Shown here: piece by piece, positions 5,821 to 23,300 of the stretch | Position numbering within the stretch: the first letter of the stretch is position 1 | How the letters are laid out: every line of letters starts with the position of its first letter | Source of the DNA: Candidatus Peregrinibacteria bacterium GW2011_GWF2_38_29 | Lineage (GTDB): Bacteria; Patescibacteriota; Gracilibacteria; UBA1369; UBA12463 | Direction of reading: 5' to 3' | Assembly: GCA_000992695.1 (NCBI GenBank) | Contig: LBUS01000008.1 | Location: 1-40,779, forward strand | Length of the DNA: 40,779 bases | Notes under the pieces: model-generated | Database searches by the model: none | Told to the model about the DNA's origin: nothing | What the model saw: only the letters and a program-made list of their open reading frames with translations | Translations under genes and position numbers: made by a program

Positions 5821-6447
5821 ATGAAGATAATTGAGGTAAAACCTTTGGGGTTATCAGAGGTTAAAGTTGTTAGATTTGAACGTTTTTTGGACGATAGAGG
5901 TTATTTTACGGAGCCTTTTAGGAGAAGTGATTTTGATAATAATGTTGATACCGGATTTTTGAAAAATGTTCAGTTTTTACAGTGTAATGAAAGTTTTTCA
6001 AAGAAGAATGTGATGCGCGGATTGCATTTTCAATGGAATCCTTTTATGGGCAAATTGGTTCGGCTTGTTTATGGTAGAATGTTTGATTTTGCTCTTGATA
6101 TACGTAAAAATTCGCCTAATTTTGGAAAGATTGTCGGTTATGAATTAAAATCGTCTTCAGATCAGAATTATGGAGAGTGGGTTTGGGTTCCGGTTGGTTT
6201 TGCTCACGGGGTGTGTTTTCTTGAAGATTCTTTGATTGAATATTTTTGTTCCAGTGAATATAGTCCCGGATGTGAGGCGTCAATTTTGCCGATTTCAGGC
6301 GATATTGATTGGTCTTTGTGCGATATTGATGTTAAAAGTACGTTTGATAAAATGTCTAAAAATATTATTTTATCCGAGAAAGATAAGCAAGGCTCGTCTT
6401 TGTCTACATGGAAAAACGATGATAGATCAAACTATTTTGTATGTTGA
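5821..6447 (+). CDS. dTDP-4-dehydrorhamnose 3,5-epimerase-like protein (RmlC family)
   Basis: This 208-residue cupin protein matches RmlC/RfbC over its whole length. FLDDRGYFTEPFRRSDF and ECNESFS-like QCNESFSKKNVMRGLHFQ contain the conserved RGLHxQ with the catalytic histidine. GKLVRLVYGRMFDFALDIR contains the strand that carries the active-site region, and WVPVGFAHGVCFLEDS contains the second conserved histidine. The family epimerises C3 and C5 of 4-keto-6-deoxy nucleotide sugars on the way to rhamnose or related sugars. No rmlA, rmlB or rmlD is in the window, so it may act on another hexose. The stop codon overlaps the next start (ATGTTGA, 7 bp), so it is translationally coupled to the large CotH-like protein. 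A role in preparing sugar for the surface glycan is likely. Confidence 0.88.
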   Translation: MKIIEVKPLGLSEVKVVRFERFLDDRGYFTEPFRRSDFDNNVDTGFLKNVQFLQCNESFSKKNVMRGLHFQWNPFMGKLVRLVYGRMFDFALDIRKNSPNFGKIVGYELKSSSDQNYGEWVWVPVGFAHGVCFLEDSLIEYFCSSEYSPGCEASILPISGDIDWSLCDIDVKSTFDKMSKNIILSEKDKQGSSLSTWKNDDRSNYFVC

Positions 6448-9400
6448 AAAATGTTATTTTTAAAAATAGGCGTACTTTTTTGGCTCTTTTTTTGTTGATT
6501 TTGACATTTTGCAGTGTATTATTATTTATTTTTTCAAATGGACCCGTTGATATCAAAGTTGTAAAAAATATCGATATCGATAATTTGAATTTGCGTGAAT
6601 ATAATGCGGAAATATTGTCATATAATATTCCTTCCAAGATGATCAAGGGCGAAATATATTTAGCCTCTGTGACTATTAAAAATTTGGGAGATAGCTCATG
6701 GACCGTTTTAGATAAATATTTTCTTGGTGAAGTTGATAATAAATTCGACTTTAGACCTTATAGAATTTATCTGCCAAGGTCTGTTCGCAAAGGCGAAATT
6801 GTGGAGTTTAAATTTCAAATGAAGGCTCCTGAAAAAGAGGGTGTATATAATCAAAAATTCAGGATGGTTCGTGAATTTGTCGCCTGGTTTGGAGATACCT
6901 TGGATATGAATATAGAAGTTACAAAAGATGAGCAATATAAGCCGACTTATAAAATTGAAAAAAGCTTGAGTGATAGCGTTGATTATTCTGCTGAAATTGT
7001 TGATTTTTCCATACCGAAAAGAATGGTTGCCGGTAAAACGTATCCCATATATTTAAGCATTAGAAATAATGGAGGTTTTTTGTGGAATAAAGCTAACAAT
7101 GTTTTTCTTGGTTTTTCAGAAGATAAAACGCAATTTTCATCTTCTATAAGGATTGATTCTTATGAAACTCGAAAGAACGAGATTATGAGTTTTAAATTTC
7201 AGATGACCGCTCCCGTAAGTAAAGGTTTATATATGCAGAAATTTCAGATGGTGCGTGAACTCGTTGCGTGGTTTGGAGATACTATAAGTATTCCAATTGA
7301 GGTTGTTGGTGCTATTGGTGATGAAAATTTTAATATAATTAAAGATTCAACCGGGAATACGGATTATGCCGGTGAAATTGTTGGTTTTGATTTTCCACGT
7401 GAAGTTATTGCCGGTAAAGTGTATTTAGCCAGTCTTTTTATAAAGAACGCCGGAACTAAGACGTGGATTAGCGGTGATGATTATTATTTGGGTTCAGTTG
7501 ATGGTGAAAGTAATTTTGGAATTGATAGAATACCGATGCCGAAAATTATTTACCCCGGCGATATAGTTTGTTTGAATTTTTCTTTAGTCGCTCCTCCAGA
7601 AGAAGGTTTATATATGGAGAAGCTTCGTATGGTGCAAGAGCTCGTTATTTGGTTTGGAGATACTTTTGAAATACAGATTGACGTGAAAAAAAATAGCGAA
7701 ATTTTATCTACGCAGATTGATAAATTTACCCTGTTATTGTCTCGCAATGACTTGAAGCACTTTGAAGATTTTTCCAATGCGAGTATTGAACGGGCCGTGA
7801 AGGTCGATGATTTAAACGATTGGAGAAAGGCTAAGCTAATTTTTGATAATCATGCTTATGACGTTAAGGTGAAAATTCATGGTGATAGCATGAATCATTA
7901 CGATACCAAAATTAAGTCTTATAGAATTAAGCTTGCAAAAAACGAATTTATAAATGGTTCAGGCGAATTTAGTTTAATAATATTTAGCGATCGCAGTTAT
8001 ATACCTATTTTGTTCGATAATTTTTTGAAGAAATTTAATATACATTTTTTAGAGCAAAAATTAGTATTTTTTTCTTTAAACAGTAAGAAATACTTGCCTT
8101 ATTATTTTAGGCCTGCAAAAAATATTGATTTTGTTGAAAAAAATGAATTTTCAAATAGTTATTTTATTGAAAAGCCGATTGTTGATCATCTTTTTTCAGT
8201 TTTTATTTCCGCGGAAGGGCATCAATCATTTTTGGACTACAATCTTTCTCATAATGAAATAAAGCCGGCTGAAAATACTGAAAAAATAAATTATTCTTTG
8301 TACTTATTGAGGCGATTATTTTTAGATAAATCAAAAAGATTATTTGATTATTTTGATCGCGAGTATTTGCTGAATTTTGAAGCTATAACCACTTTATTTC
8401 TAAATACGCATGATATTGTTGGCGATAATTTGGCGATGATTTATAGATCTACAAATGGAAAATTCGTTCCAATGCCGAGTGAGGAATTTATGTTTATATA
8501 TAGAAATTTGTTAGTTGAGGTTGAGTCAAATCATGTTTATTGCGATAGGTTGTCCGGTTATAGATTAGCCGATTTTGTAAAAATATTTTCTTATTTTAAT
8601 TCCGATCCCGGGTTTAGACAAGAAAAATATAAAAAAGTTTTTGATGCCGTTAAGGATGATACATATTTCAATAAAGCCGTTGTTGACTTTGAAAATAGTA
8701 TTTTAGCCATGATGCGCGAGGGGATTGATTATAGGCAATTCGGTAATCCGGTTCATTTGGTTTATTTGAAGCATAATATGGAGTTTTTAAAAAATGAATT
8801 GTCGTCTTCCAAGTTTTTAATTTTTCCGAAAGCCATGGGGTCTTCCAGGTCCTTGATTAAGTTAAATCCGATTTCCATTTCCGAGATAAAATTTAATAAT
8901 TTTAAAATTAATTTTAAAAATAAATTTTTACCGGGAGAAACTATAAGGTTAAATTTAAAAAATAAAGATAAAGAAGTTGTTAGTTTTTTAAAAATCGCCA
9001 GTGCATCAAGTGAAATCGATATAGTCGGCTTATTAAACTCTTCGCATTTTTATTTAAATTTAGATAAAGATCTTTATCCCGGGATTAATGAATTTGAGCT
9101 GACGTTGGATTATCCACATAATTTTATAAATAACTTTGCTTTTAATGCCAAGAATGAGATTTCCAATTTAAATTTGATAAATAATGAAGATATTTTTGTT
9201 GTTAATGATTTTAACGGCTATCGCGCGTTGATTGATAGATATTTTAAGTATCAAGACAATAAAACCAATAATATGGTTTGTGTTCCAAGATATGACAATG
9301 ACCTTAAGGACTTTGATAAATCATTATTGATCGACAACTCCAAGTTGCAAAATTTATATAAAAAGCTTATCGAATTTATAAAAAGTTCCGATGCTAATTT

Positions 9401-11078
9401 TGAAGATTTGAAGAAAAGATTTTTAAGCGCTGCGTTGACTTTGCAATTGTACGCTTCGCCCGACGTTATTAGCGCTGAGCTTAATAGTGTTTCTTCCTCC
9501 AATCCCGATCGTAATTTAGATTTTTTTGAGTCTTTGAAGAAAAGAATTGTTTATGATTTGAATTTTGGCAAGATATTTATGAATGTATTTGAAAAAGAAA
9601 ATTCAATTGATATCGCCCTGTTGCCAATATCATTATCTGACATTAAAATTGATCGTTTTATTATAAATTTAAAAAATTCAATTTCATCGAAATTAACAGT
9701 TGATGTTGAATTGAGAAAATTTGGCGGTTCCGTATTGTATAGTAAAAAATACACATTTGATAATGGAATCATGGATTTAACGAACTTTTTTAATAATTTG
9801 ACTTTTAATAGTGATCTGAACGAGAAATTAAAGGTACAGAGGACTGAATATGATTTGCATATTTTAACAAATTTCAGAGGGCATGTTGCAATCGATTCAA
9901 TTGATTTGAGTGCCATAAATATGGTTACCGGGCTTAAATTGTCTTCTGACGATGTTAAATACGCCGTGGCTGATGCTAATCAGCATTATGATGACGAGAG
10001 GTATTTCGGCTTTGTGGAGACTTTTAATAAGTATAAAATTTTTAATTTAAATAACGGTAACTTGGTTTTAAACGGGAATGTTTTTGTTTCCGAGGACGTT
10101 ATTATTCCTTATAATACAACTTTAATAATAAAACCCGGTACAAAAATTATTATGGCGCCCGGAGTTTCAATTTTGTCTTATTCCAAGGTGGTTGCTGAAG
10201 GTACGGAGGTTTTGCCCGTTTATATAAAAGCTGAAAATTCCGAACAGCCGTTTGGCGTATTCGCCATTGTTGAAGATGGCGCCAGTGGAAGCTCATTTAA
10301 ATATTTTAATGTAGAAAACGGTAGCGAAGCCTATATAAACGGGCTTTATTTATCCGGTATGTTTTCCGCTTATCACACCAATGATGTCGTGATTGATCAT
10401 TCTTCTTTTAAATTTTCTCATTCAGACGATGGAATTAATCTTAAATATTCAAATTCGAAGGTTTTAAATTCTTATTTTTATAAAAATAGCGCGGATGCGA
10501 TCGATTTTGATTTTATGTCCGGTGAAATTATTGGTAATAAATTTGAGGAAAATGGTAATGACTCTGTTGATATTTCCGGCGGTACAACGCTTATAAAAGA
10601 TAATTATATGTATAAATCCGGCGATAAAGGCGTTAGCGTTGGAGAAAATAGTAAGCCGTTAATTTTGAATAATCTCATGAATGGTTGTCATATTGGTATA
10701 GAATCAAAAGATTCGTCTTATCCAATCATCGTAAACAATACAATTATTAATGGCGATATCGGGATGAATGCTTATCAGAAAAAAGAAATTTTTGGTTCTG
10801 CGGGAGGAGAGGTTTGGAATACTTTGATTTTTGGCAATAAAGAACAGATCGTATATAAAAATACTTTTAAAGGCGAAAAATTGAGCACCGATTATAGTGA
10901 GATTTTCGTAAAGCATTCAGATGTTGAGGGTGGGTTTAGTGGGACAGGGAACGTTGATGTTGATCCAGGTAAAGACGTATTTTGGCTGGATGACATTGGG
11001 AATTTTAATATAATGATGAAATATTTCCCCGGCTATGCGGGAAACGGCAGAGTTGGCATTTTAAATAAATTAAATTGA
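6441..11078 (+). CDS. Giant membrane-anchored protein: three NBR1-like Ig domains, CotH-like domain, beta-helix
   Basis: This 1545-residue protein has one N-terminal hydrophobic segment (about residues 13-32), so most of it should be outside the membrane. Residues about 53-415 contain three repeats of about 105-125 residues, each ending in MV(R/Q)E(F/L)V(A/I)WFGDT plus a beta strand, resembling the NBR1 (four-tryptophan) Ig-like domain. From about 428 the sequence FTLLLSRNDLKHF, then VKVKIHGDSMNHY and KSYRIKL, matches the start of CotH-type protein kinase domains. The later LFLNTHDIVGDNLAM and KFVPMPSEEF correspond to the CotH region that normally ends in PWD, here PSE. Residues about 1210-1520 are short Asn/Gly-rich turns (for example DGINLKYSN, DAIDFDF, DSVDISGG) typical of a right-handed parallel beta-helix. 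VTC and DUF4956 genes follow at once, a neighbourhood known for CotH-family genes. Kinase activity is uncertain. Confidence 0.72.
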   Translation: MLKNVIFKNRRTFLALFLLILTFCSVLLFIFSNGPVDIKVVKNIDIDNLNLREYNAEILSYNIPSKMIKGEIYLASVTIKNLGDSSWTVLDKYFLGEVDNKFDFRPYRIYLPRSVRKGEIVEFKFQMKAPEKEGVYNQKFRMVREFVAWFGDTLDMNIEVTKDEQYKPTYKIEKSLSDSVDYSAEIVDFSIPKRMVAGKTYPIYLSIRNNGGFLWNKANNVFLGFSEDKTQFSSSIRIDSYETRKNEIMSFKFQMTAPVSKGLYMQKFQMVRELVAWFGDTISIPIEVVGAIGDENFNIIKDSTGNTDYAGEIVGFDFPREVIAGKVYLASLFIKNAGTKTWISGDDYYLGSVDGESNFGIDRIPMPKIIYPGDIVCLNFSLVAPPEEGLYMEKLRMVQELVIWFGDTFEIQIDVKKNSEILSTQIDKFTLLLSRNDLKHFEDFSNASIERAVKVDDLNDWRKAKLIFDNHAYDVKVKIHGDSMNHYDTKIKSYRIKLAKNEFINGSGEFSLIIFSDRSYIPILFDNFLKKFNIHFLEQKLVFFSLNSKKYLPYYFRPAKNIDFVEKNEFSNSYFIEKPIVDHLFSVFISAEGHQSFLDYNLSHNEIKPAENTEKINYSLYLLRRLFLDKSKRLFDYFDREYLLNFEAITTLFLNTHDIVGDNLAMIYRSTNGKFVPMPSEEFMFIYRNLLVEVESNHVYCDRLSGYRLADFVKIFSYFNSDPGFRQEKYKKVFDAVKDDTYFNKAVVDFENSILAMMREGIDYRQFGNPVHLVYLKHNMEFLKNELSSSKFLIFPKAMGSSRSLIKLNPISISEIKFNNFKINFKNKFLPGETIRLNLKNKDKEVVSFLKIASASSEIDIVGLLNSSHFYLNLDKDLYPGINEFELTLDYPHNFINNFAFNAKNEISNLNLINNEDIFVVNDFNGYRALIDRYFKYQDNKTNNMVCVPRYDNDLKDFDKSLLIDNSKLQNLYKKLIEFIKSSDANFEDLKKRFLSAALTLQLYASPDVISAELNSVSSSNPDRNLDFFESLKKRIVYDLNFGKIFMNVFEKENSIDIALLPISLSDIKIDRFIINLKNSISSKLTVDVELRKFGGSVLYSKKYTFDNGIMDLTNFFNNLTFNSDLNEKLKVQRTEYDLHILTNFRGHVAIDSIDLSAINMVTGLKLSSDDVKYAVADANQHYDDERYFGFVETFNKYKIFNLNNGNLVLNGNVFVSEDVIIPYNTTLIIKPGTKIIMAPGVSILSYSKVVAEGTEVLPVYIKAENSEQPFGVFAIVEDGASGSSFKYFNVENGSEAYINGLYLSGMFSAYHTNDVVIDHSSFKFSHSDDGINLKYSNSKVLNSYFYKNSADAIDFDFMSGEIIGNKFEENGNDSVDISGGTTLIKDNYMYKSGDKGVSVGENSKPLILNNLMNGCHIGIESKDSSYPIIVNNTIINGDIGMNAYQKKEIFGSAGGEVWNTLIFGNKEQIVYKNTFKGEKLSTDYSEIFVKHSDVEGGFSGTGNVDVDPGKDVFWLDDIGNFNIMMKYFPGYAGNGRVGILNKLN
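6597..7686 (+). repeat. Three tandem NBR1-like Ig repeats inside the giant protein
   Basis: Three coding repeats share the order (N/S/G)(A)E(I) strand, IP or FP turn, KM/RM/EV with (I/V)xGK/GE(I/T)Y, then a W core, (Y/V)FLG or YYLG, a KxEI(V/M) linker with FKFQM or LNFSL, and finally the WFGDT ending. They lie at about residues 53-157, 174-285 and 304-415. The repeats differ clearly in nucleotide sequence, so the duplication is old. Confidence 0.7.
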
Positions 11079-11081
11079 CTT

Positions 11082-11822
11082 ATGAAGTTAAAATCGAGTA
11101 AAAATATTGTTTTATCGTTTAGAAGATTTGAATTTAAATATCAAATTCCAAAAACCATAGTCGGTAAAATCATTCCTCAGTTAATGAAGTACATGATTTG
11201 GGATGAATATGCCGGAAGCAACGGTTATTATGAAGTACATAGCTTATACATGGATTCGCCGCATTTTAAATGTTATCACGAAAAGCTTGACGGTTTTATA
11301 GATAGAAAAAAAATTCGTATAAGAAGTTATAAAAAAACGCTTAATAGCGACGATATCGTGTTTTTTGAATTGAAACGTAAAAGCGGTTCAGTCATATTAA
11401 AAGACAGATCTATGGTTAAAGTTAAGGATTTTAAATTATTTGCCGGCAATCCTTTTGCATTTTTCAGTATTGAAAATTATAAAAATGATTTTTTTAATGA
11501 ATTTGTTTATGATTTTTCCAAATATCATATGAAGCCCGTTACCCTTGTGTCTTATAAAAGGAAGCCGTTTTATTCGAAATTCGATAAGAATTTTCGTGTT
11601 ACTTTTGATTATGATTTGAGTTTTGCAAAAATAAAAGATTTTGATTTTAGCGTCAAATCCGAATGCGCGTATCATGATTTAGCTGTCATGGAAGTTAAGT
11701 TTAACGGCGCCATGCCAAGGTGGTTTCATGATATAATTGAGATGCATGGTCTTACTCATGATACATTTTCGAAATATTGTGGAGCCGTTGAGTTTTGCTA
11801 TGGCTTGCCTGATTATTTTTAA
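11082..11822 (+). CDS. VTC-domain protein, polyphosphate polymerase-like
   Basis: A 246-residue protein that fits the VTC domain (tunnel-shaped triphosphate-binding fold). Key stretches are RRFEFKYQIPK at the N-terminus, VHSLYMDSPHFKCYHEKLDG, then RKKIRIRSY with the basic residues that should line the tunnel, VFFELKRKSG, VSYKRKPFY with the next basic pair, RVTFDYDL, and LAVMEVKFNG with the acidic metal-binding residue. In eukaryotes the domain makes polyphosphate from ATP; in bacteria it often stands beside DUF4956 and CotH-family genes, as here. It starts 3 bp after the giant CotH-like gene and 18 bp before the DUF4956 gene. It lacks a signal peptide, so it should face the cytoplasm. Whether it is an active polymerase or a sensor cannot be told from sequence alone. 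Confidence 0.85.
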   Translation: MKLKSSKNIVLSFRRFEFKYQIPKTIVGKIIPQLMKYMIWDEYAGSNGYYEVHSLYMDSPHFKCYHEKLDGFIDRKKIRIRSYKKTLNSDDIVFFELKRKSGSVILKDRSMVKVKDFKLFAGNPFAFFSIENYKNDFFNEFVYDFSKYHMKPVTLVSYKRKPFYSKFDKNFRVTFDYDLSFAKIKDFDFSVKSECAYHDLAVMEVKFNGAMPRWFHDIIEMHGLTHDTFSKYCGAVEFCYGLPDYF

Positions 11823-11840
11823 TTTTTTAACTAAAAACAT

Positions 11841-12524
11841 ATGGATATTTTTAAAAAGAAAGCCTTGGTGCTGATTTTCGGAGATCCTTTACAATTAGCC
11901 ATTTTACTCTTGATCGCTACCGCACTCGGTTTTGCTATAGCTTGGACTTACAAGAAAACACATAAAGGATTTTCCTATTCACAGTCATTTAGCGTTTCCA
12001 TTATTCTTATGACCGTTGTAACTGCTTTAATTATTACTTTGATACAAGACAGTATAGCTAGAGCAATTGGTATTTTTGGAGCATTTTCGATAATTAGATT
12101 TAGAACTGCCGTTAAAGATGTTCGCGACATTGCTTTTATATTTTTCGCTTTAGCAACCGGACTTGCGGTCGGTGTTAAATCTTTCGCAAGCGGCGTTGTT
12201 GGCGTAATCATAGTGTGTGGTTTGGTTTTTGTTTTATATAGAACAAATTTCGGAGGGCTTAGAAGGTTTGAGTATGTTTTATCATTTAGAATGGAATCCA
12301 AACATCATTCCGGGAATTTATTTAAAGATTTATTTGATCGTTATACAAAAACTCAATCTTTGCTTAATGTTGACGCTAAAGATAAGGGGGCTTTTTTATT
12401 TTTTACATTTCATGTTAAATTGAGAGATGAGGAGAAGCTGAATGAATTTATAGCCGAAATGAATAAAGTAAATGGAGTTAGTGATGTTAATATAGTTTCG
12501 TCCGATAATGATTTGGAATTTTAA
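11841..12524 (+). CDS. DUF4956 family membrane protein
   Basis: This 227-residue protein has four predicted hydrophobic segments in its first 140 residues, with the highly typical FRTAVKDVRDIAFIFFALA between the second and third. A soluble C-terminal half (about 145-227) has a mixed alpha/beta look, ending EMNKVNGVSDVNIVSSDN. DUF4956 proteins occur beside VTC-domain proteins and CotH-family proteins in many bacteria. Their function is unknown, although membrane partnering of the VTC protein, for example as a channel or anchor, has been the natural guess. Gaps to both neighbours are below 20 bp. The family is quite certain, the role is not. Confidence 0.88.
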   Translation: MDIFKKKALVLIFGDPLQLAILLLIATALGFAIAWTYKKTHKGFSYSQSFSVSIILMTVVTALIITLIQDSIARAIGIFGAFSIIRFRTAVKDVRDIAFIFFALATGLAVGVKSFASGVVGVIIVCGLVFVLYRTNFGGLRRFEYVLSFRMESKHHSGNLFKDLFDRYTKTQSLLNVDAKDKGAFLFFTFHVKLRDEEKLNEFIAEMNKVNGVSDVNIVSSDNDLEF

Positions 12525-12530
12525 TATTTT

Positions 12531-14129
12531 ATGGATATATTTTTAAAAAAACTTGGGATTACGAAGCCGTTTATCGTTAAATATTGGCCTTATTTGGTTC
12601 TTGTTCCGTTCCTTATTTATTTCAGTTTTTATTATCCTTGGTATTTTCAATTGATATTTTTGGGTTTTTCAGCCGCGATTGTCGGACTTTATTTTAAATT
12701 GCATAAATCCGATGCGCTTGATATTCCAATTTGGCCTTTGCTTGTTTTGAGTTTGGTGGTTTTGATTTTTAGCAGGGTTTATCCGTTTTTTTTGAGTGAT
12801 TGGCCGCTTGGATATGACACAGGTATATATAAGTGGCATTTCGAGAAAGCGTTTTCGATTTTTCCAAGCTTTAATACGGGGCTTTATCCCGGCGTATTTT
12901 TGATTACGGATTTGCTTTATGCCGTTGGGTTTAAAAGTGTATCGATTTTGGGCGGTTGGTATGCTTTTTTTGATTTGTTGATTCCTGTTGCATTGTTTTT
13001 CTATTGCAAGAAAGAATTTGGTATAAAAGTTGCGGCGATAAGCGTATTTTTATTTGCTATTTCTTTAGCTCAAGCACAAGCTTATTCGTTTATTCTATAT
13101 AAAAACATCATTGCTCTTTCTGTAATGCTTTTTGCATTTTTATTGATGGAAAAAAGATCGTATTTTGCGATATTCCCCGCTGTGTATTTGGTATTTTTAC
13201 AACCTCCGGATTTTTTGATTTTCGTACTTACCGTTGCGGTTTATTTTGTTTTAAATATAAAAGACAAGGCAAAAAGAAATTATATTTTAATTTGTATGCC
13301 GATCGTTGCCGCTCTTGGGGCAATCATGTTTATTGTGAGTCCAAATGTTATGAAGGAAGGCTTGAACGCTCTTATAAATTTTAAAGAGATGGGGGAATCC
13401 GCAATGAAAGAGGGTATGTTTATGGATCCTGCGAAGTATCTTGGGCTTTCAATCTTATATGTTCCGTTTGCAATGTTTGGGTTTGCGTATCTTATAAATG
13501 GAAGAAAATTTAATTTGGCGTTCAGTTACTTTTTTGTTGTTTTTCTATTTATCGCGTTTAAATTGATTTTCTATAAGAGATTTTTGATTGAATTTGATCT
13601 TGGCGTGATTATGCTTGCGAGTCTTGGTGCATATTTGATTTTTAGGAAATTTTATTTATCCGTGTCGGGGAAAATTACGCTTTATGCTATTGTTTTTGCT
13701 TTGATTGCGGCAACGCTTTATGGGACGCTTTTGTATAAGCCGTTTATTTCCAAGGCTGAGCTTGATGATATACAATCGCTTTCAAAAACCGAGAAAACCA
13801 GTGTTGTTGTTGCAACAAGCAGTTTGCACGCTCCGTGGTTGTTGGGTTTTAGTGAAAGGCCGACAATCGCGCCCGGGATGTTTGATATGAATAGGTGGGA
13901 TTTTGGTGATTGGCAAAGATTTTGGAGAGGGAGTATGGCGGATCATTTGATTCTTTGGCAGGATTATAAGGATATTCAGGGACCTTTATATTTATTTTAT
14001 GGCTTGCGTGAGCCATGGCCTGATTTTAAAAATTTTCCTATTTATAAAAGAATTTCAAATTTTGTTTGGAGATACGTTCCCGGAGAAGTTGTTAATCAGG
14101 AAACGAGCGATAAGTCTGTCAAAAAATAA
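12531..14129 (+). CDS. Polytopic membrane protein, GT-C glycosyltransferase-like
   Basis: A 532-residue protein with about eleven to thirteen hydrophobic segments over residues 15-410 and a soluble C-terminal tail of about 110 residues, probably on the outer face. After the third hydrophobic segment comes DWPLGYDTGIYKWHFEKAF. An acidic residue in this first outer loop is the hallmark of GT-C transferases that use lipid-linked sugars. The tail is rich in Trp and Pro (for example NRWDFGDWQRFWRGSMADH). I do not recognise a named family, so the transferase role is a guess from topology. It starts 6 bp after the DUF4956 stop codon and ends the operon. It could modify a surface protein or glycan made by the neighbouring clusters. 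Confidence 0.6.
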   Translation: MDIFLKKLGITKPFIVKYWPYLVLVPFLIYFSFYYPWYFQLIFLGFSAAIVGLYFKLHKSDALDIPIWPLLVLSLVVLIFSRVYPFFLSDWPLGYDTGIYKWHFEKAFSIFPSFNTGLYPGVFLITDLLYAVGFKSVSILGGWYAFFDLLIPVALFFYCKKEFGIKVAAISVFLFAISLAQAQAYSFILYKNIIALSVMLFAFLLMEKRSYFAIFPAVYLVFLQPPDFLIFVLTVAVYFVLNIKDKAKRNYILICMPIVAALGAIMFIVSPNVMKEGLNALINFKEMGESAMKEGMFMDPAKYLGLSILYVPFAMFGFAYLINGRKFNLAFSYFFVVFLFIAFKLIFYKRFLIEFDLGVIMLASLGAYLIFRKFYLSVSGKITLYAIVFALIAATLYGTLLYKPFISKAELDDIQSLSKTEKTSVVVATSSLHAPWLLGFSERPTIAPGMFDMNRWDFGDWQRFWRGSMADHLILWQDYKDIQGPLYLFYGLREPWPDFKNFPIYKRISNFVWRYVPGEVVNQETSDKSVKK

Positions 14130-14245: not shown

Positions 14246-17086
14246 ATGTTCAAGAAACTATTCTTGAATGAGAGAATGCAGAAGTTCACCGCTGTACTTA
14301 CAGCTTTGAGCGTTTTTGTGTTTTCCGTTTACGCGGCACCTGCGGTATATGGTGCATTTTGGAGAATCAATCCCGATACTTTAGAGTGGGATAGCACTCC
14401 GGACGATGATAGTGAGTTTATAGCCGGTTATGGTTATGGTTATAGTTTTGAAGATGGAGAATATATTTATGGTTATGGTTATGGCTATGGCTACGGTTAT
14501 GGTTATGATAGCGGAGAATATTCATATGATGATGAAGGCGATGTGACAATTGATGGGGACATGACTTCTGTCAATATGTATAGCTATGGTTATCTTTTGG
14601 TTCCCGCTGCGTCCGCGTCTGCAGTTAGTGATGCAACAGTTTTTTATACAGTTAGAAGTCTTACTATAAATGATGGTTCTGCATCTGTTACGATTCCAAC
14701 GGGGACACGTATAACTCTTACGGGTGGTACTGCGAACGATTTGAAAATGCAAGTTGATGCAGCTCCTTCCGGAGACGGATTTAGTTATGCAGGTTATACG
14801 AATTATGGTTTGATGGAGTTTAGCGATAAGAATGGTATTATTACGGGCATGGATTTTAGTCCAAGCATTGAAGTTACGATTCCTACGACCGGTGTTGCGG
14901 ATAGTACTGTGCTTGAGGTTTTTTATAGCACAGATGATGGAGCTACGTGGGTTGATGATTCTAACACCTGTACGGTTTTAAGTAACGAATGTACGTTTGA
15001 AATAGATCACGCAACGCAATATGCGGTTGGTAATGATGTAGTCGGACCAACGGTTTCGAATGTTACCGCTACAACGTCAAATGGTTCGTATAATGCCGGT
15101 GATGCCGTTGCCATTACGGTTACGTTCACAGAAGCCGTCACGGTTACCGGTACTCCAAGAATTGAACTTGAGACCGGAGATACAAATAGATATGCTACAT
15201 ATGCTTCAGGTTCAGGTACAACAATTTTGACATTTACTTATACCGTCCAGTCCGGTGATACATCGAGCGATTTGGATTATGTTGCTACAAGTTCTCTTGG
15301 TTTGAATAGTGGCACAATCAAGGACGATGCAAATAATGACGCAACTCTTACTCTCGCGACTCCGGGCGCAACATATTCTCTTGGTGCAAACAAGGCGCTT
15401 GTGATTGATACAACGGCGCCTACGTTTACCGTTCAATATTATTCAGATTCAGATCTTGCGACTTCACTTGGTGATAATCCCGATTTGAAAGCCGGAACAT
15501 ATTATTTGAAGATTACCGCAAGCGAAACATTAGGTGCGGCTCCAACAGTTGCAATAGCGGCTGAAGGAACAGCAAACGATGTTACAACGGTTTCCGCGAC
15601 AGCTGTTAGTGGACTCGATTATAAATATACAAGAACAATTGCATCTGATGCGGCTGCTGTTGGATCGGTTTTGGAAGACCTTACAATAACGGGTAGCGAT
15701 TCCGCCGGTAATGAAGGAACTACTGTCAGCAACGAATCTACAAAAGCGGGTTATACAGATACAACCGCACCTTCTGCTCCGAGCCCAAGCCCTGCGGCCG
15801 GAACTTATTCAACAACTCAGAGCGTGCAATTATCTTCGACGGGTAGCACGTCTATCAGATATTCCACATCTTCCGCTCCTACGACTTGTTCCGAAGGCAC
15901 CGAATATACGACTTCAATAACCGTTTCTTCAACAACCACGATATATGCAATCGGTTGTGATGATGCGGAAAACGTTTCTTCAAGCTCAACTTCCACATTT
16001 ACAATTGGCGGAGGTGGAGGTCTTGGTGGAAGTGGTGGAAGCGGAGATTCCGTTGGACTTCCCGTTTATGGACTGCCAACAACTTCTTCAAATACACCTC
16101 TTGAGATAAAACAACCAATTGATTTGCCTCCAACGGGTTTGTTCTCAAGACCGGTTGTTTTGTCCAGTACATCGGGTAACGTTTCAGTCAGTATTCCAAA
16201 AGATACGATTGCTACAGATGATGCCGGCAAACCTTATTCCGGAGTTATCAATCAACCACAAGTTTTGCCTCTTGGAAGCGCTCCAGCATTAGCACCTGCG
16301 GGTAATCAAACAGTGTATGTGGTTTCCGTTAAGACTGATGTTCCCGTACATTTCTCAAAGAAAATCAAGATTACAATACCTTTGCCTTCAACGGTTAATC
16401 CTAATAGCGCGTCCGTTTATTATTATAATGAGCATACGGGTGTATATGAGTTGCTTGTAGGAACGCCTACGGCGGATGGAAAAGGCATTGAAGTTGAACT
16501 TGATCATCTTACGAAATTTATCGTGACTGTGCCTGAGACATATGTTGCGGGATCATTCCTTGATTTGCCTGCAAGTCATTGGGCAACTGAATATGTAAAG
16601 AAGCTTGTTGATAAGGGCATTGTTAAGGGAAAACCTGGAAATAAATATGAACCTTCAGCCGTTTTGACTCGTGCTGAAATGGTGAAGATTGCAATGCTCG
16701 CATTTGGTAAAAAAGTACCTGCAAGTGTTACAAAAACTTCGTTTAAAGATGTTAAAACAAGTGATTGGTTCGCGCCTTATGTTGAGATCGCAAAAGAACT
16801 TGGAGTGGTTGGAGGATATGATGATAATACGTTTAGACCCGGCGCATCCGTTTCAAGAGCGGAAGCATTGAAAATATTACTTGTTGCCGCGGCTAGAACT
16901 TTGACGACAGATAAAACCATATCGTTTAAAGATGTCGCCGCTAACGCATGGTTTGTTCCATATCTTAAATTCGCGGTTGCAAATAGTGTTGTCGCCGGTT
17001 ATACGGATGACACATTTAGGCCTGTAAATTCCGTTAATAGAGCGGAAATTGCAAAGATGACCGTTAAGTTGATGGAGCTGAAGTAA
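14246..17086 (+). CDS. SLH-domain surface protein with Tyr-Gly tract
   Basis: This 946-residue protein starts with an N-terminal signal-like segment ([20 protein letters not shown], about residues 12-31). A Tyr-Gly-rich tract follows (about 60-92), then an Ig-like beta domain (about 270-390) ending [17 protein letters not shown] chitobiase/hexosaminidase C-terminal-like module lies at about 511-582 ([17 protein letters not shown]) with a [13 protein letters not shown] linker, then a ZU5-like stretch (about 635-760). Three SLH domains end the protein (about 768-945), each with the FxD...W...Y start and (L/V)(T/S/N)RAE ending. SLH domains bind pyruvylated or other secondary cell-wall glycan, so this is probably an S-layer or adhesin anchored to the glycan layer. 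It has its own promoter and is followed by a terminator. Confidence 0.9.
14426..14506 (+). repeat. GGTTAT hexamer repeats encoding a Gly-Tyr tract
   Basis: GGTTAT occurs three times in a row at 14426-14443 and six times at 14471-14506 (two copies as GGCTAT or GGCTAC), separated by 27 bp. Each hexamer encodes Gly-Tyr. In-frame tandem hexamers can change copy number by slippage without breaking the reading frame. Confidence 0.9.
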
Positions 17087-17171
17087 ATAACAAAATCTAA
17101 AATCCAAATTGTTCCAAATGAATTGAAAATGACAAATGAGTGATAGAGATTAAAGATTGAAACTGAAATTG

Positions 17172-17204
17172 AAGGAAGGGTTCTCAAAAAGGACCCTTCC
17201 TTTT
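17172..17204 (+). terminator. Rho-independent terminator after first SLH gene
   Basis: A 13-bp stem with one G-U pair joins 17172-17184 (AAGGAAGGGTTCT) and 17190-17202 (AGGACCCTTCCTT) over the loop CAAAA, with a T-run at 17201-17204. It is 86 bp after the stop codon. The stretch 17087-17171 between stop and hairpin shows no gene, only A-rich short repeats such as AAAATCTAAAATCCAAA. Confidence 0.85.
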
Positions 17205-17324
17205 AAATAATTAATTTTTAATTTTCAAGAAGAGAATGAAGGCAGTGTGATTATCTAATAATGCAGTAGTTGCCAAAATTACCATTGATATTTTAATAAA
17301 TTTATGTTAAGATATTAAGAATTG

Positions 17325-17370
17325 TATTAAAAATAAAAATTAATATATAATTATTAAAAATAAAAATTAA
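17325..17370. repeat. 19-bp direct repeat in leader of second SLH gene
   Basis: TATTAAAAATAAAAATTAA occurs at 17325-17343 and again at 17352-17370, a 27-bp period. It lies 13 bp upstream of the start codon of the second SLH gene in a very AT-rich leader. It may be a protein-binding or RNA-stabilising element, or an A/T-rich UP-like element. The rest of 17205-17324 shows no gene. Confidence 0.75.
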
Positions 17371-17382
17371 CAAATTTGTTTT

Positions 17383-20300
17383 ATGCACACTTTAAACACG
17401 TTTTTTAAAAAAGCCAGAAGTTTTTTGGTAAAGACTTTAATTTTTGCCATGGTTTTTTCGGTATTGAATTTGCCTATGCCGCAAGCTTTTGCGGTTGGTG
17501 AGACCGGAACAATTTCAGGAACCGTTACTTCAGGAGGCAGTCCCGTTGAAGGCGTTGAAGTTAATATTCTTTTAATGAGTGATTCCGGTCCGGACGCATG
17601 CGATATTGGGGAATGCGTTGCAACCACTGATGCGAGCGGAAATTACAGTATTTCCAGTATACCCGTCTATGCGGACTGGAGTGTTTTTGCCAGAAAAACA
17701 GGATATTTGGGGTCTATGTCTCATGAGATTCCCGTTACAGATGGTGGCACAACCGATGTTGATGTTTCTTTGACCGAGGGAGTTGGAGATAGTGTTTCCG
17801 GTACGATTACGGATGGCACAAATCCCGTTGAGGCTTTTGTTATATTTTTTGGTGACAATGGAACTTGGAATATGGGGAATAGTTCCGTGGACGGTTATTA
17901 TAGTTTTTCGGGACTTTCAGCCGGTACGTTTTTTGTGTATTCCGGCACTGACAGCATGGGATATTTTAATGATGCCGTTGTTATTTCCAGCGGATCGAAC
18001 GATTTTGACATTATTCTTGTGGGAGAACCGCCACAAGTGGTTTACATGGGTCCATCTAATGTTATGGCAACTTCCGTGGATTTGACGGGCACGATAAGTT
18101 CTAATGGAGGTTCTGATATTACGGAAATTGGTTTCAATTATGGTTTGACAACCGGTTATGGTGACAATGTTTCCGCTACCGCAGGCGCGCCTTATACCGG
18201 TAATTTCACGCTTAGCATTACGGGTTTGGCTTGTAATACAACGTATCATTGGCAAGCTTATGCTGTTAATTCAAGTGTGACCGGGAGCAGTAGCGATAAT
18301 ACTTTTACGACCGGCGCTTGCGTTAGCACTCCGACGGTTCTTTTCGGTTCCGTTACAGATGTTACCACTACAAGTGCAACTTTGAACGGAAATATAACCA
18401 GTGTTGGTAGCTCAAGCGTTATCGAACGCGGTTTTAATTATGGTTTGACAACGAGTTATGGTACAAATGTTTCTTTGACGGCAGGCGCGCCTTATACGAC
18501 CGGCACATATTCTTCCGCCATATCATCTTTAACTTGCGGTACAACTTATCATTATAGGTCTTACGCGATTAATTCAGTTGGAACGAACTATAGCGCCGAT
18601 GCTAATTTTTCAACTTCTTCATGTGTCGGTACCGCTCCAACCGTTAGTACCGGTGCGGCAACATCCATTACGACAACAGGCGTGACTTTGAGCGGAAATA
18701 TAACAAGCACCGGAAGCACTGACGTTATCGAGCGTGGTTTTGAATGGGGGCTTTCAAATACTTATGGTTATTCACAGGCTTTTACCGGATCGGGTCCTTA
18801 TTCCGGTGGTTATTCATATGAGTGGCTTAGCGCTATTTGCGGCACAACTTATCATTATAGGTCTTACGCGATTAATTCAGTTGGAACGAGCTATGGGAAT
18901 GATGTTACGTTTGCTACGGCCGCGTGTGAAGAAAGTGAAGAAGGAGTTGGCAGTATTCGCGGCGTAGTCGCAAGAGCCGCCGGAGGAATTATGCTTGGAG
19001 GGGTTTCCGTGACGGTTAATCCCGGGAATTATACAACTACAACGAATGGCAGTGGCGTGTTTACCGTTACCGATTTAACGGCCGGTGAATATACCGTAAC
19101 CGTAAATAGTTCCGGTTTTACGGCTCAAACCCAGGAGGGCATAACTGTTACGTCCGATAATGAAGCTTCTGTTTCATTTTCTCTCGGCAGAGATGAAAGC
19201 GGTAGTTTTGCAGTTTCGGAGGTCAAAATATATACCGATAGAATTATCGTTAGATTTAATCATGGCGCGATTGATGGTACTTTTGATTGTTCAAATTATT
19301 TGATTGATGGTGAATCTCCGGAATGTATGTGGGGAGGCGGAACTGCGGCTACCGGATTTAACAGTACGTCCGCATTTGAGAAAAAACCGTTTGTTGAATA
19401 TATGGGAGACAATGTTGTAATTAAAAATCTTGAGATTTCAGGTGAAGTTACGTTTGCCATTCCGGCGGATAACGGTATTAAAGATGGTTCAAATAATTTT
19501 TTGGAAGCTTATACCGTAACTGCTACAGCTGAAGAGTTAAGTCTTCCAATTATTTCCGATATTACTCCGGATAACGGATCTGTTGGCGATACTATAACCA
19601 TCACGGGTACTAATTTTGGAGTACTTGGTGAAAGTGATTATATGGGTGATGATAATCATAAAGTTTTATTTGAAGCAGGATGGAATCAGACGACATATCA
19701 ACCAAATCTTCCGGTTGAAGCGACTTATCTTGGATGTACCGGTGGTTGTTCTTGGGGTGCTACGCAGATTAAAGTTAAAGTTCCTACCGGCGCGAAATCC
19801 GGCCCTTTGAAAGTTTTCGTGAACGGAAATATGAATGATGCCGATTATAATGCGTTTTTTGATGTAGCCGGTTCATATGCGTTTAAAGTTTATTATGGAC
19901 AAAATGATGATACAAGCACTCCAATGCCCGACGCGGACGCAGGTAATATACGTGCGCATATTGGTGGCATGAACGGAGAAGAATCACATTATGTTGGAGA
20001 TGGAAACATGACGTATGATACCGATTCCGATACCTTTACGGTTGCCGGAGTTTCTTCCATGGGTTGGACTTTTGCGTATGACGTTACGGGAGCGCATTTA
20101 AGTTCCGATGGCAACGAAATTACAACAACCGAGACGAGGAATATATTTATTCCGACAAGCTATAGGACAATTTCCGGTACGATTACTCTCGGGTCAACTT
20201 GTACAAGTGCCGGACAAAATAAACAAGTTGTTGTTTTTCCATCGCCTCAGCAGGTGGATTTTGGCTCGGAAGGATTTAAATCCACACAACCGATTTTTGT

Positions 20301-23300
20301 GACAACGAATTCGGAATGTACTTCCAATTATACAGTCGGTGTTTCAACGGCCGGTATTTATCGTATGGAATCTCATATACCGCCGGATAAAGGCGGAACT
20401 ACCGTTTCCGCTTCGCAGTTTGTTGATCCGGATGCTTTAACGGTTACCGTTAACGGCGAAAATATTACAGGACAAAATTTTACTTACACTTCCGCGACGC
20501 ATAAAATCGTTGGTACGATTACAAAGCCTTCGGGCTCATTCGGAGATGATGAGAGGGATATGCTTTGGGTTTGGGCTTATCAGCCAAGGGAAAATGGAAG
20601 AGGTACAGGCACACAAGTTAATGATGATAATACGTTTACGCTTTATGTAACTCCCGGCGTTTGGAAGGTTGGTGTCGGTGGTTCAAATATACAATATCCA
20701 ATTGAAGTGAGCGTTGAAGTTGATGGCACATATGCGATTGATCAACCTGATAAAGGTCCAAATATCGTTATCGCTCCTCCGTCTGATTTCATTGAGGGTT
20801 ATGTTAAAGATGCAAATGGCGTAGGGCTTTCAAATTCAAGTATTTATGCATGGAGAGAGGGTGGTTCCGGAGGAGGGAATTCTATGACTAATAGTGATGG
20901 TTATTTTAAGATGTATGTTCAAGAAGGATCCAATTACCATGTTGGTGCGAATGCCAAGCGATATGGATATCTTGGGGAGTATACAGGTATAAACGTTAGT
21001 TCTTCAGAGCATCCGACTGTTAATTTCGTTGTTTCTTCATCGAGTTTTCATGCAGTGTCCGGAGTTATTACAAAGAATGGGAACGTTTTACAAAACGCTT
21101 TTGTTTATGTGACGGAAGGTGAATGGGGGCAAGGCGTTGCAAGTGGTGGAACGGATTCGAGCGGAGTTTATTCTCTTACGCTTCCGGATGGGAATAATCG
21201 ATATATTCACGTTGGACTTCCGGGTTCGGGAGATGTTTATAAAGCAAGTTTGGGAGCAACGAGTGCCGATGCAACTCACAACGTAACAATCGTGACATCT
21301 GCGATTACAGTTCGTATTTCTCCCGCAAGTCTTTTTGATCAAGCTTTTGTTGGAGCTGATGATCCTACGAACCAAACAGGGTCATTCTCGAATACAAATG
21401 TCGCATCCGGAGATGCATCTTATAAAGAATATCAAATTGATGTTAGACGTCCTTCTTCAGGGTCAAATACACTTTATGTTCATGGGAATATTCCCGGATT
21501 TGGCCCTCTTGGGGAGCCGGAATCCGTGACGATAAACAGTGCCGGTTCGTTTACAGAATCAAGTGGAACCGCAAATGACGGAATTATTGAATATTCTTTG
21601 ACCGGTTATCAAACCGTTTCAGGTACAGTTACCGGCGATAATGTTGTTGGTGCGTGGATATGGGCAGGCGGTTCAAATGGCGGTGGAGGATCTCCTGTTA
21701 ACGATGATGGAACATTTTCATTTAAATTGAAAAATGGCACTTACGATATTGGAGTTGATAAGCCCGGATATATTGGAGGAAAAACCGAGATAACGGTTAG
21801 CGATGAAGATATAACCGATATTTCTTTAACTCTTACATCTGCATCGGATACAATCACGGGGATAATTTATTATCCAACAAGTTCCGCCGCATCGGGTGCA
21901 AGAGTTTGGGCTGAAAACGGTTCCGGTGGACATGCATTTGCAATGTCCAATGCTGATGGCACTTATACATTAAACGTTACCGCCGGAGATTGGACCGTTA
22001 TGGCGGGACACGATGGATATTATTCGGATAGAGCGTCTATTACGGCTCCAGCAACAGGGGTAAATATTACACTTGTTCAAGACGCCGGATTTAATCCGCA
22101 GCTTAAAAATGAGCCTATTATTCCATCAGATGGTGGAGTTGTAAATGGAACAGGTATTAAGGTTAATGTTCCAAAAAACGCTCTTGGCACAGGCGCAACC
22201 GCCGGTACGGTTGAGGTTAAAAACACAACAAATATTCCCGTAACTTCGAGAACAAAACTTGTTGGTACCGCAAAAGAAATCACAGCTAAAAATGAGTCAA
22301 ATCAGGACGTTAAAAATCTTGAAGGAGAGGCAACAATCGAATTCACTCTTTCAAGACAAGATTTGATTGATGAGAATGTCGACACTATTGCTGAAGCCAG
22401 TCGAATAGAAATATATTCATGGGACGATACGGCTAATAACTGGGTCGCTCTCTCAACTGTTGCAACGTTAAATCCCACGTCCGCCGCAACGATAGCTGAG
22501 CTTGATGAAACGTCTGCTGTTACTTTAACCGCATCCACAACTCACTTCTCGGCATTTGCTCCAATGTTGCCAACAGGTGAAGATGCTCCTGACGCACCTT
22601 CAAACCTTGAAGCTGCTGCCGGCGATGCAAGTGTTACACTGACTTGGGATGCCGTTTCCGGTGCTTCAAAATATTATGTTTATCAAAAGTCGGGAGACGT
22701 TTATCCTTATTTGAATGAGACAACTTCAACCAGTTATACCGTTAGTTCGTTAACCAATGGTACGGCTTATTATTTTAAGGTTTCCGCTGTTAGTTCCGGA
22801 GACGCCGAATCTTCCGCAAGCGGACCGGTTACAGCAACTCCTGTTGCCGCGGCCGTTAAAGGCGTTACAGTTACAGAATCGAGCGGTTCAACCGCTGTTG
22901 CCGAAGGTGGCGCTACCGATACTTATACTGTTGTTCTGGACGCTTTGCCTTCCGCAACGGTTACCGTTGCGGTTAGTGTTGGTGCCGATGTGACCGTTTC
23001 TCCAACTTCATTATCATTTACAACCGGCAACTGGGCCACTCCACAAACAGTTACGGTTACCGCTGTTGATGATTCAACTTATGAAGGGGCTGAAGTTTCA
23101 ACTATTACGCATTCCGCTACAAGTTCAGATACGGATTATAATGGAATATCGATTAGTAGTGTTGTTGCTGCTGTTACAGACAACGAATCCGCTCCTACCG
23201 GTGGTCTTGGTGGAGGCTATATCGCGAACGAACTTCTTATTACTGAAAAGACTGAGATAGAAGTTAAGAAAACGGAGTTGATAGCGAAGGAAGTAATTAA

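What the first reader, a model, noticed from the sequence alone, without database searches (positions are those of the whole stretch)
6441..12524. CotH-like / VTC / DUF4956 trio with a giant anchored protein, coupled to a sugar epimerase
Seen: five genes on one strand with gaps of at most 18 bp. The RmlC-like epimerase overlaps the CotH-like gene by 7 bp, and the VTC, DUF4956 and polytopic genes follow. Known: VTC polyphosphate-polymerase-like, DUF4956 and CotH-family genes occur together in many bacteria without an agreed function. Inference: here the trio may couple polyphosphate or a phosphate-driven reaction to modification of an exported surface structure, because it lies between a glycan export operon and SLH protein genes. 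This is the best candidate for an undescribed system.
Basis: partly seen in the sequence, partly recalled or inferred. Interest (0 to 1): 0.65.

Follow-up and report, generated by a model that had tools for sequence, protein, structure and literature searches.

The report
VTC–DUF4956 module with CotH/beta-helix protein
A tiny-genome bacterium carries a compact set of genes that probably makes a phosphate chain inside the cell and passes it across the membrane to a large enzyme-like protein on its surface, and the same set recurs in many of its relatives, which makes its long-unknown purpose testable.

Summary
Window 6441-12524 encodes a 1545-aa anchored protein, a VTC-domain protein and a DUF4956 protein in one tight operon of a Peregrinibacteria-type CPR genome. 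The large protein misses the Pfam CotH model, but its family profile and predicted fold match solved CotH (5JD9/5JDA). It also carries three N-terminal Ig-like domains and a C-terminal beta-helix. VTC and DUF4956 co-occur almost perfectly across 287 phylum genomes (Fisher 2e-25), usually beside CotH and glycan genes. In CPR the usual third gene is a CotH–beta-helix fusion, which I found in no paper. The helix carries a charged ladder (8 Asp, 4 Lys, 1 Glu) conserved in every VTC-positive locus examined. In one genus that lacks VTC but keeps the fusion, the ladder and the CotH catalytic Asn are lost. This ties the surface protein's active features to VTC. Best mechanism: cytosolic VTC makes polyphosphate, DUF4956 passes or gates it, and CotH–helix uses it outside on a surface glycan; these steps are inferred. 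The epimerase and polytopic genes are not conserved partners. The trio itself is known (Pel accessory genes), so this is a new variant of a known kind.

The parts
6441..11078 (+). 1545-aa surface protein: N-terminal membrane anchor, 3 Ig-like domains, CotH domain, middle region, right-handed beta-helix
6567..7715 (+). three N_BRCA1_IG-type Ig-like domains (residues 43-425); one such domain also in the G013 homologue
7716..8795 (+). CotH kinase-like domain (residues 426-785); keeps H486, H657, D658, N663; catalytic metal Asp replaced by E681
   Evidence: dN/dS 0.044
9999..10925 (+). beta-helix domain (residues 1187-1495) with conserved ladder D1330 D1352 D1355 D1357 D1374 D1377 D1395 K1396 E1402 K1423 D1424 K1447 K1448
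11082..11822 (+). VTC-domain (polyphosphate polymerase-like) protein, no membrane segment, tunnel residues conserved
11841..12524 (+). DUF4956: MgtC-like membrane domain with invariant R86/R88, plus ACT-fold C-terminal domain
5821..6447 (+). RmlC-like epimerase; overlaps the large gene by 7 bp but adjacency seen only in this genus
12531..14129 (+). 532-aa polytopic protein of unknown family; adjacency seen only in this genus

Best explanation
The core is a two-gene transmembrane unit, VTC + DUF4956, paired with a secreted executor protein. VTC, a cytosolic tunnel enzyme, makes polyphosphate from ATP. DUF4956, an MgtC-like membrane protein with an invariant basic motif and an ACT-fold (sensor-type) domain, gates or conducts the chain outward. 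This would be the bacterial counterpart of the channel-plus-sensor arrangement of the yeast VTC complex. Outside, where ATP is not supplied, the CotH domain and the beta-helix of the anchored protein use or bind the delivered phosphate to modify, or link to, a surface glycan. Shown here: the co-occurrence and gene adjacency, the conserved VTC tunnel residues, the CotH and beta-helix folds, and the joint loss of VTC, the helix ladder and the CotH Asn. Inferred: that polyphosphate is the product, that DUF4956 carries it, and that a glycan is the substrate.
For: VTC and DUF4956 occur in the same 18 of 287 phylum genomes (one VTC only, two DUF4956 only, the latter two at contig ends), and in 10/10 of the relatives that have either at cut-off. 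Gene order varies between loci, so selection rather than inherited order keeps them together. VTC/DUF4956 distances correlate at 0.86, against 0.66-0.67 with CotH. The VTC residues equivalent to R264/R266/E426 of Vtc4 (mutated in the variant used in PMC9911596), plus the tunnel Lys/Arg set, are invariant in 24 proteins. No PPK1 in any of 59 relatives. Strong helix hits: 12 in 287 genomes, all in VTC/DUF4956 genomes (these were mostly seed rows). Held-out set of 17 genomes: VTC present in 12/12 outside genus g372, next to the helix gene in 11. Genus g372 (5 genomes) has no VTC, keeps the CotH-helix protein, but retains only 15% of the invariant charged cells against 49% of other conserved cells (Fisher 2.5e-7), and N663 is Glu in all four that have the domain.
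Against: No activity is shown for any bacterial VTC in what I read. In S. intermedius, deleting the VTC gene gave no reported change in aggregation or Pel, while deleting the CotH or DUF4956 gene did (PMC12345266). The window's CotH has Glu in place of the metal-binding Asp. The g372 loss is one clade, so one event, and its five genomes are not independent; absence of DUF4956 there was checked only near the gene. That DUF4956 is a channel rests on analogy. Two loci in CPR and one in Paenibacillus replace CotH with a Cthe_2159 protein, so CotH is not obligatory.
Confidence: 0.42

Rival explanations
1. VTC and DUF4956 form a signalling or regulatory unit: the VTC product or the ACT-bound ligand adjusts the output of a surface-glycan pathway, and CotH-helix is a phosphorylation-controlled or scaffold protein. 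No phosphate crosses the membrane.
For: DUF4956 ends in an ACT-like regulatory fold. In S. intermedius, loss of DUF4956 raises Pel and loss of CotH lowers it (PMC12345266), the sign pattern of regulators. The window CotH lacks the metal Asp.
Against: Does not readily explain why the extracellular helix ladder is lost when the cytosolic VTC is absent, nor why the CotH domain is under strong purifying selection (dN/dS 0.044).
Confidence: 0.25
2. VTC is not a polyphosphate polymerase here but a tunnel enzyme acting on another phosphate donor or acceptor, such as a lipid-linked or nucleotide sugar. DUF4956 then flips or positions it for the CotH-helix protein.
For: The tunnel-metalloenzyme fold has many activities (PMC4641920, PMC8233210). 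One locus carries a second, CYTH-type tunnel protein (L017). Loci are rich in sugar-nucleotide genes.
Against: The Vtc4-like catalytic residues are kept; the only solved structures hit are VTC subunits.
Confidence: 0.18
3. VTC and DUF4956 serve ordinary phosphate storage or Mg/phosphate homeostasis, and CotH is a frequent passenger.
For: VTC means storage in yeast; MgtC affects phosphate metabolism (discussed in PMC12345266). Bacteroides ihuae has VTC and DUF4956 without a Pfam CotH hit.
Against: 17 of 18 CotH-bearing genomes in the phylum sample also have DUF4956; adjacency persists despite shuffled order.
Confidence: 0.1
4. Chance adjacency of unrelated genes.
For: None beyond the compact genome.
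Against: Fisher 2e-25 for VTC with DUF4956 and 2e-23 for DUF4956 with CotH.
Confidence: 0.01

Closest known systems
cotH-polyphosphate polymerase-DUF4956(-DUF4832) accessory genes of Gram-positive pel clusters (PMC7112168; SIR_1592-1594 in PMC12345266)
   Same: The same three families, adjacent; secreted CotH, VTC, MgtC/ACT-type DUF4956; linked to an exopolysaccharide
   Different: No PelG in this genome and none over cut-off in 58 relatives; here CotH is fused to a beta-helix with a conserved ladder; found across CPR. PMC12345266 reports finding the arrangement nowhere outside the Pel locus; these CPR loci are such cases
Yeast VTC complex (Vtc1/3/4; PMC9911596)
   Same: Same catalytic tunnel domain with the same key residues; membrane partner with basic residues; separate sensor domain
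   Different: No SPX or VTC-type membrane domain on the enzyme; the membrane partner is DUF4956 with an ACT fold; destination would be the cell surface rather than a vacuole
Bacillus CotH spore-coat kinase (5JD9/5JDA)
   Same: Fold over about 330 residues; catalytic-loop D658/N663 kept
   Different: Metal Asp is Glu here; group-specific His486/His657; membrane-anchored, fused to Ig and beta-helix domains; about 12% identity
AlgG/AlgE C5-epimerases and PL6 lyases
   Same: Right-handed beta-helix fold (Z 24-30)
   Different: About 13-15% identity, no convincing sequence-level hit, own D/K ladder; activity unknown

Membership tests
CotH kinase family | CotH fold | tested here: met
   Foldseek 5jda E 3.7e-10; Z 24.4, rmsd 3.5, 328 aligned; family profile hits 5JD9 E 5e-35
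CotH kinase family | Direct Pfam PF08757 match | tested here: not met
   No hit at E 0.01 for the window protein or at 0.001 for its genome; homologues do match
CotH kinase family | Catalytic-loop Asp and Asn (D228 region) | tested here: met
   D658 and N663 align with 5JD9 'DGFVHN'; residue roles are from memory of the B. subtilis work
CotH kinase family | Second, metal-binding Asp (PW-D) | tested here: not met
   E681 in the window; Asp in most relatives
VTC polyphosphate polymerase | VTC domain over cut-off | tested here: met
   151.8 bits, cut-off 23
VTC polyphosphate polymerase | Tunnel catalytic residues | tested here: met
   R79, R81, E96, K98, K107, R160, R172, E204, K206, K231 invariant; align to Vtc4
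VTC polyphosphate polymerase | polyP synthesis from ATP | not testable with these tools
   Needs the purified protein
DUF4956 | Pfam PF16316 over cut-off | tested here: met
   57.5 bits, cut-off 30.6
MgtC/SapB | MgtC membrane domain with C-terminal ACT domain | tested here: inconclusive
   NCBIfam PRK09977 E 2e-5 but 24 bits against a cut-off of 214; ACT-like fold matches
Pel accessory module | Adjacent to a pel operon | tested here: not met
   No PelG in own genome, none over cut-off in 58 relatives
Beta-helix C5-epimerase / PL6 lyase | Beta-helix fold | tested here: met
   AlgG Z 30.1, AlgE6 Z 28.6
Beta-helix C5-epimerase / PL6 lyase | Family catalytic residues | not tested
   No sequence hit below E 0.03; active-site superposition not done

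The most novel reading that the evidence does not exclude
A bacterial transmembrane phosphate-polymer pathway: VTC and DUF4956 make and export polyphosphate, and an extracellular CotH-beta-helix enzyme uses it in place of ATP as phosphoryl donor to modify surface glycans.
Probability: 0.25. Interest if true: 0.88.

Novelty: new variant of a known kind. Interest (0 to 1): 0.57.

Why it matters
VTC, DUF4956 and CotH genes travel together across distant bacteria, and the one knock-out study I found left the mechanism open. The CPR loci add a further clue: a beta-helix whose charged residues are conserved wherever VTC is present and lost in the one lineage seen to lack VTC. That turns a vague gene association into a specific prediction, namely that the VTC product is what the extracellular CotH-helix protein handles. 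If true, it would explain how an extracellular kinase-like enzyme works without ATP.

Tried and rejected
Epimerase and polytopic gene as conserved partners: own-profile searches found them at the module only in this genus; BLASTP of the polytopic protein against a PMT_2 neighbour gave nothing, PDB and NCBIfam nothing. A Pel-type system: PelG absent. tblastn of the helix domain against plasmids: no match. Genome-contig scan with VTC returned only the sister genome. General decay of the CotH domain in g372: its conserved charged columns taken together do not stand out statistically; N663 and the helix ladder do. The middle region (residues 786-1185) modelled at low confidence and was not interpreted. 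A naive, ungapped dN/dS for the downstream SLH gene is not meaningful and was dropped. A first attempt at the conservation script failed on a coding error and was rerun.

Full report
What is there. Five genes lie on the + strand as described: an RmlC-like epimerase, a 1545-aa protein, a VTC-domain protein, a DUF4956 protein and a polytopic protein. The genome is 1.23 Mb; its closest named relative is Candidatus Peregrinibacteria GW2011_GWC2_39_14 (VTC 93% identical). All five genes are the same length in the sister genome and under purifying selection.

The large protein. Pfam sees three N_BRCA1_IG domains and a NosD-type beta-helix but no CotH. A homologue in G012 (936 aa) is called CotH plus beta-helix by Pfam and aligns along the CotH and helix regions at 29% identity. 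The family profile hits the solved CotH 5JD9 at E 5e-35. An AlphaFold model of residues 426-1545 gave CotH as the top Foldseek hit and Z 24.4 for the CotH part, and Z 28-30 to AlgG/AlgE epimerases for the helix part. The window protein keeps the catalytic-loop Asp and Asn (D658, N663) but has Glu681 where most relatives have the metal-binding Asp. Two histidines (486, 657) mark the helix-type CotH group. The CotH region has dN/dS 0.044 against the sister genome, so it is not a relic.

VTC and DUF4956. The VTC residues that form the Vtc4 tunnel are invariant in 24 homologues and align with yeast Vtc4. No PPK1 exists in this genome or 58 relatives. DUF4956 has a membrane domain with invariant R86 and R88 and an ACT-like C-terminal fold; a weak NCBIfam hit and the literature (PMC12345266) relate it to MgtC.

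Recurrence. In 59 relatives VTC and DUF4956 occur in the same 10 genomes at cut-off level, and in 287 phylum genomes in the same 18 (Fisher 2e-25); 17 of 18 CotH-bearing phylum genomes have DUF4956. Among 27 loci read in detail the third gene is a CotH-beta-helix fusion in twelve, CotH without an attached helix in several, CotH plus a separate helix in one, and a Cthe_2159 beta-helix protein in two. Gene order varies (CotH-VTC-DUF, DUF-CotH-VTC, VTC-DUF-CotH). Neighbours are rich in glycosyltransferases and sugar epimerases, but the three compact loci L014-L016 were left out of that scan and seem to sit among other kinds of genes. Six hits in the plasmid collection show VTC outside CPR, next to DUF4956 in five: with CotH adjacent in Planococcus and Pseudobutyrivibrio, CotH 2.3 kb away in Enterococcus, Cthe_2159 in Paenibacillus and neither in Acetoanaerobium; in the sixth, Nonomuraea, a CotH gene follows VTC and my ORF caller listed no DUF4956.

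The helix ladder. The beta-helix has 20 invariant columns in 315, against 3 in 360 for CotH, among them charged residues (8 Asp, 4 Lys, 1 Glu), several about 22 residues apart, as expected for stacked rungs. In 287 phylum genomes strong hits to this domain (E about 1e-99 or better) occur in 12, all VTC/DUF4956-positive; the next hit is 8e-8. Those 12 were mostly seed rows, so a further class sample was searched, which gave 17 new genomes. Outside genus g372, VTC is present in all 12 and next to the helix gene in 11 (G468 and G514 by coordinates, G514 with about 1 kb between; G013 has it on another contig). In genus g372 five genomes keep the CotH-helix gene but have no VTC. There the ladder is gone (15% of invariant charged cells kept, against 49% of other conserved cells, p 2.5e-7) although fold and other positions persist, and N663 is Glu. 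More divergent VTC-positive pairs (24% identity) keep the whole ladder; only the preceding D1329 varies, to Glu. This is one clade and hence one event; the p-value counts sequences, not events.

Reading. The VTC product, or something that depends on it, is what the extracellular CotH-helix protein most likely handles. By analogy with the yeast complex, where a tunnel enzyme feeds a basic channel under control of a sensor domain (PMC9911596), I propose VTC + DUF4956 as polyP synthase and translocator and CotH-helix as the surface executor acting on glycan. The S. intermedius deletions (CotH: less Pel; DUF4956: more Pel, less aggregation; VTC: no reported change) support a role in exopolysaccharide but not a strict dependence on VTC (PMC12345266).

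Novelty. The trio is published as Pel accessory genes (PMC7112168, PMC12345266), and VTC and CotH genes are listed in the C. perfringens locus NELoc-2 (PMC2879425). The CotH-beta-helix form, its ladder, its link to VTC and its spread through CPR away from Pel were not found in the held literature.

Noticed in passing
L017:7692-8738 (G017): A second tunnel-type protein (CYTH domain, E 1e-5) sits between CotH and VTC in one relative's module.
   Followed up: no
L093:8438-11755 (G360): One protein carries two helix copies; the first has lost much of the charged ladder, the second keeps it.
   Followed up: partly
L043, L059, L096, L098, L102, L103: Tandem CotH genes: a CotH-only gene next to the CotH-helix gene.
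   Followed up: no
L091:7783-11982 (G013): A 1399-aa relative has an Ig domain near its C-terminus and Ser-Glu in place of Trp-Asp in CotH as in the window, with VTC/DUF4956 on another contig.
   Followed up: partly
L053:7281-8717, L057:10019-11602, L114:7461-9359: A Cthe_2159 beta-helix protein takes the place of CotH next to VTC and DUF4956 in two CPR genomes and in Paenibacillus.
   Followed up: partly
window 6441-11078, residues about 826-870 and 1075-1115: The middle region seems to contain two similar segments (ISISEIKFNNFKINFKN / ISLSDIKIDRFIINLKN).
   Followed up: no
window 14246-23895: Two large SLH-domain proteins directly downstream; SLH proteins also lie near the module in L017 and L019.
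   Followed up: no
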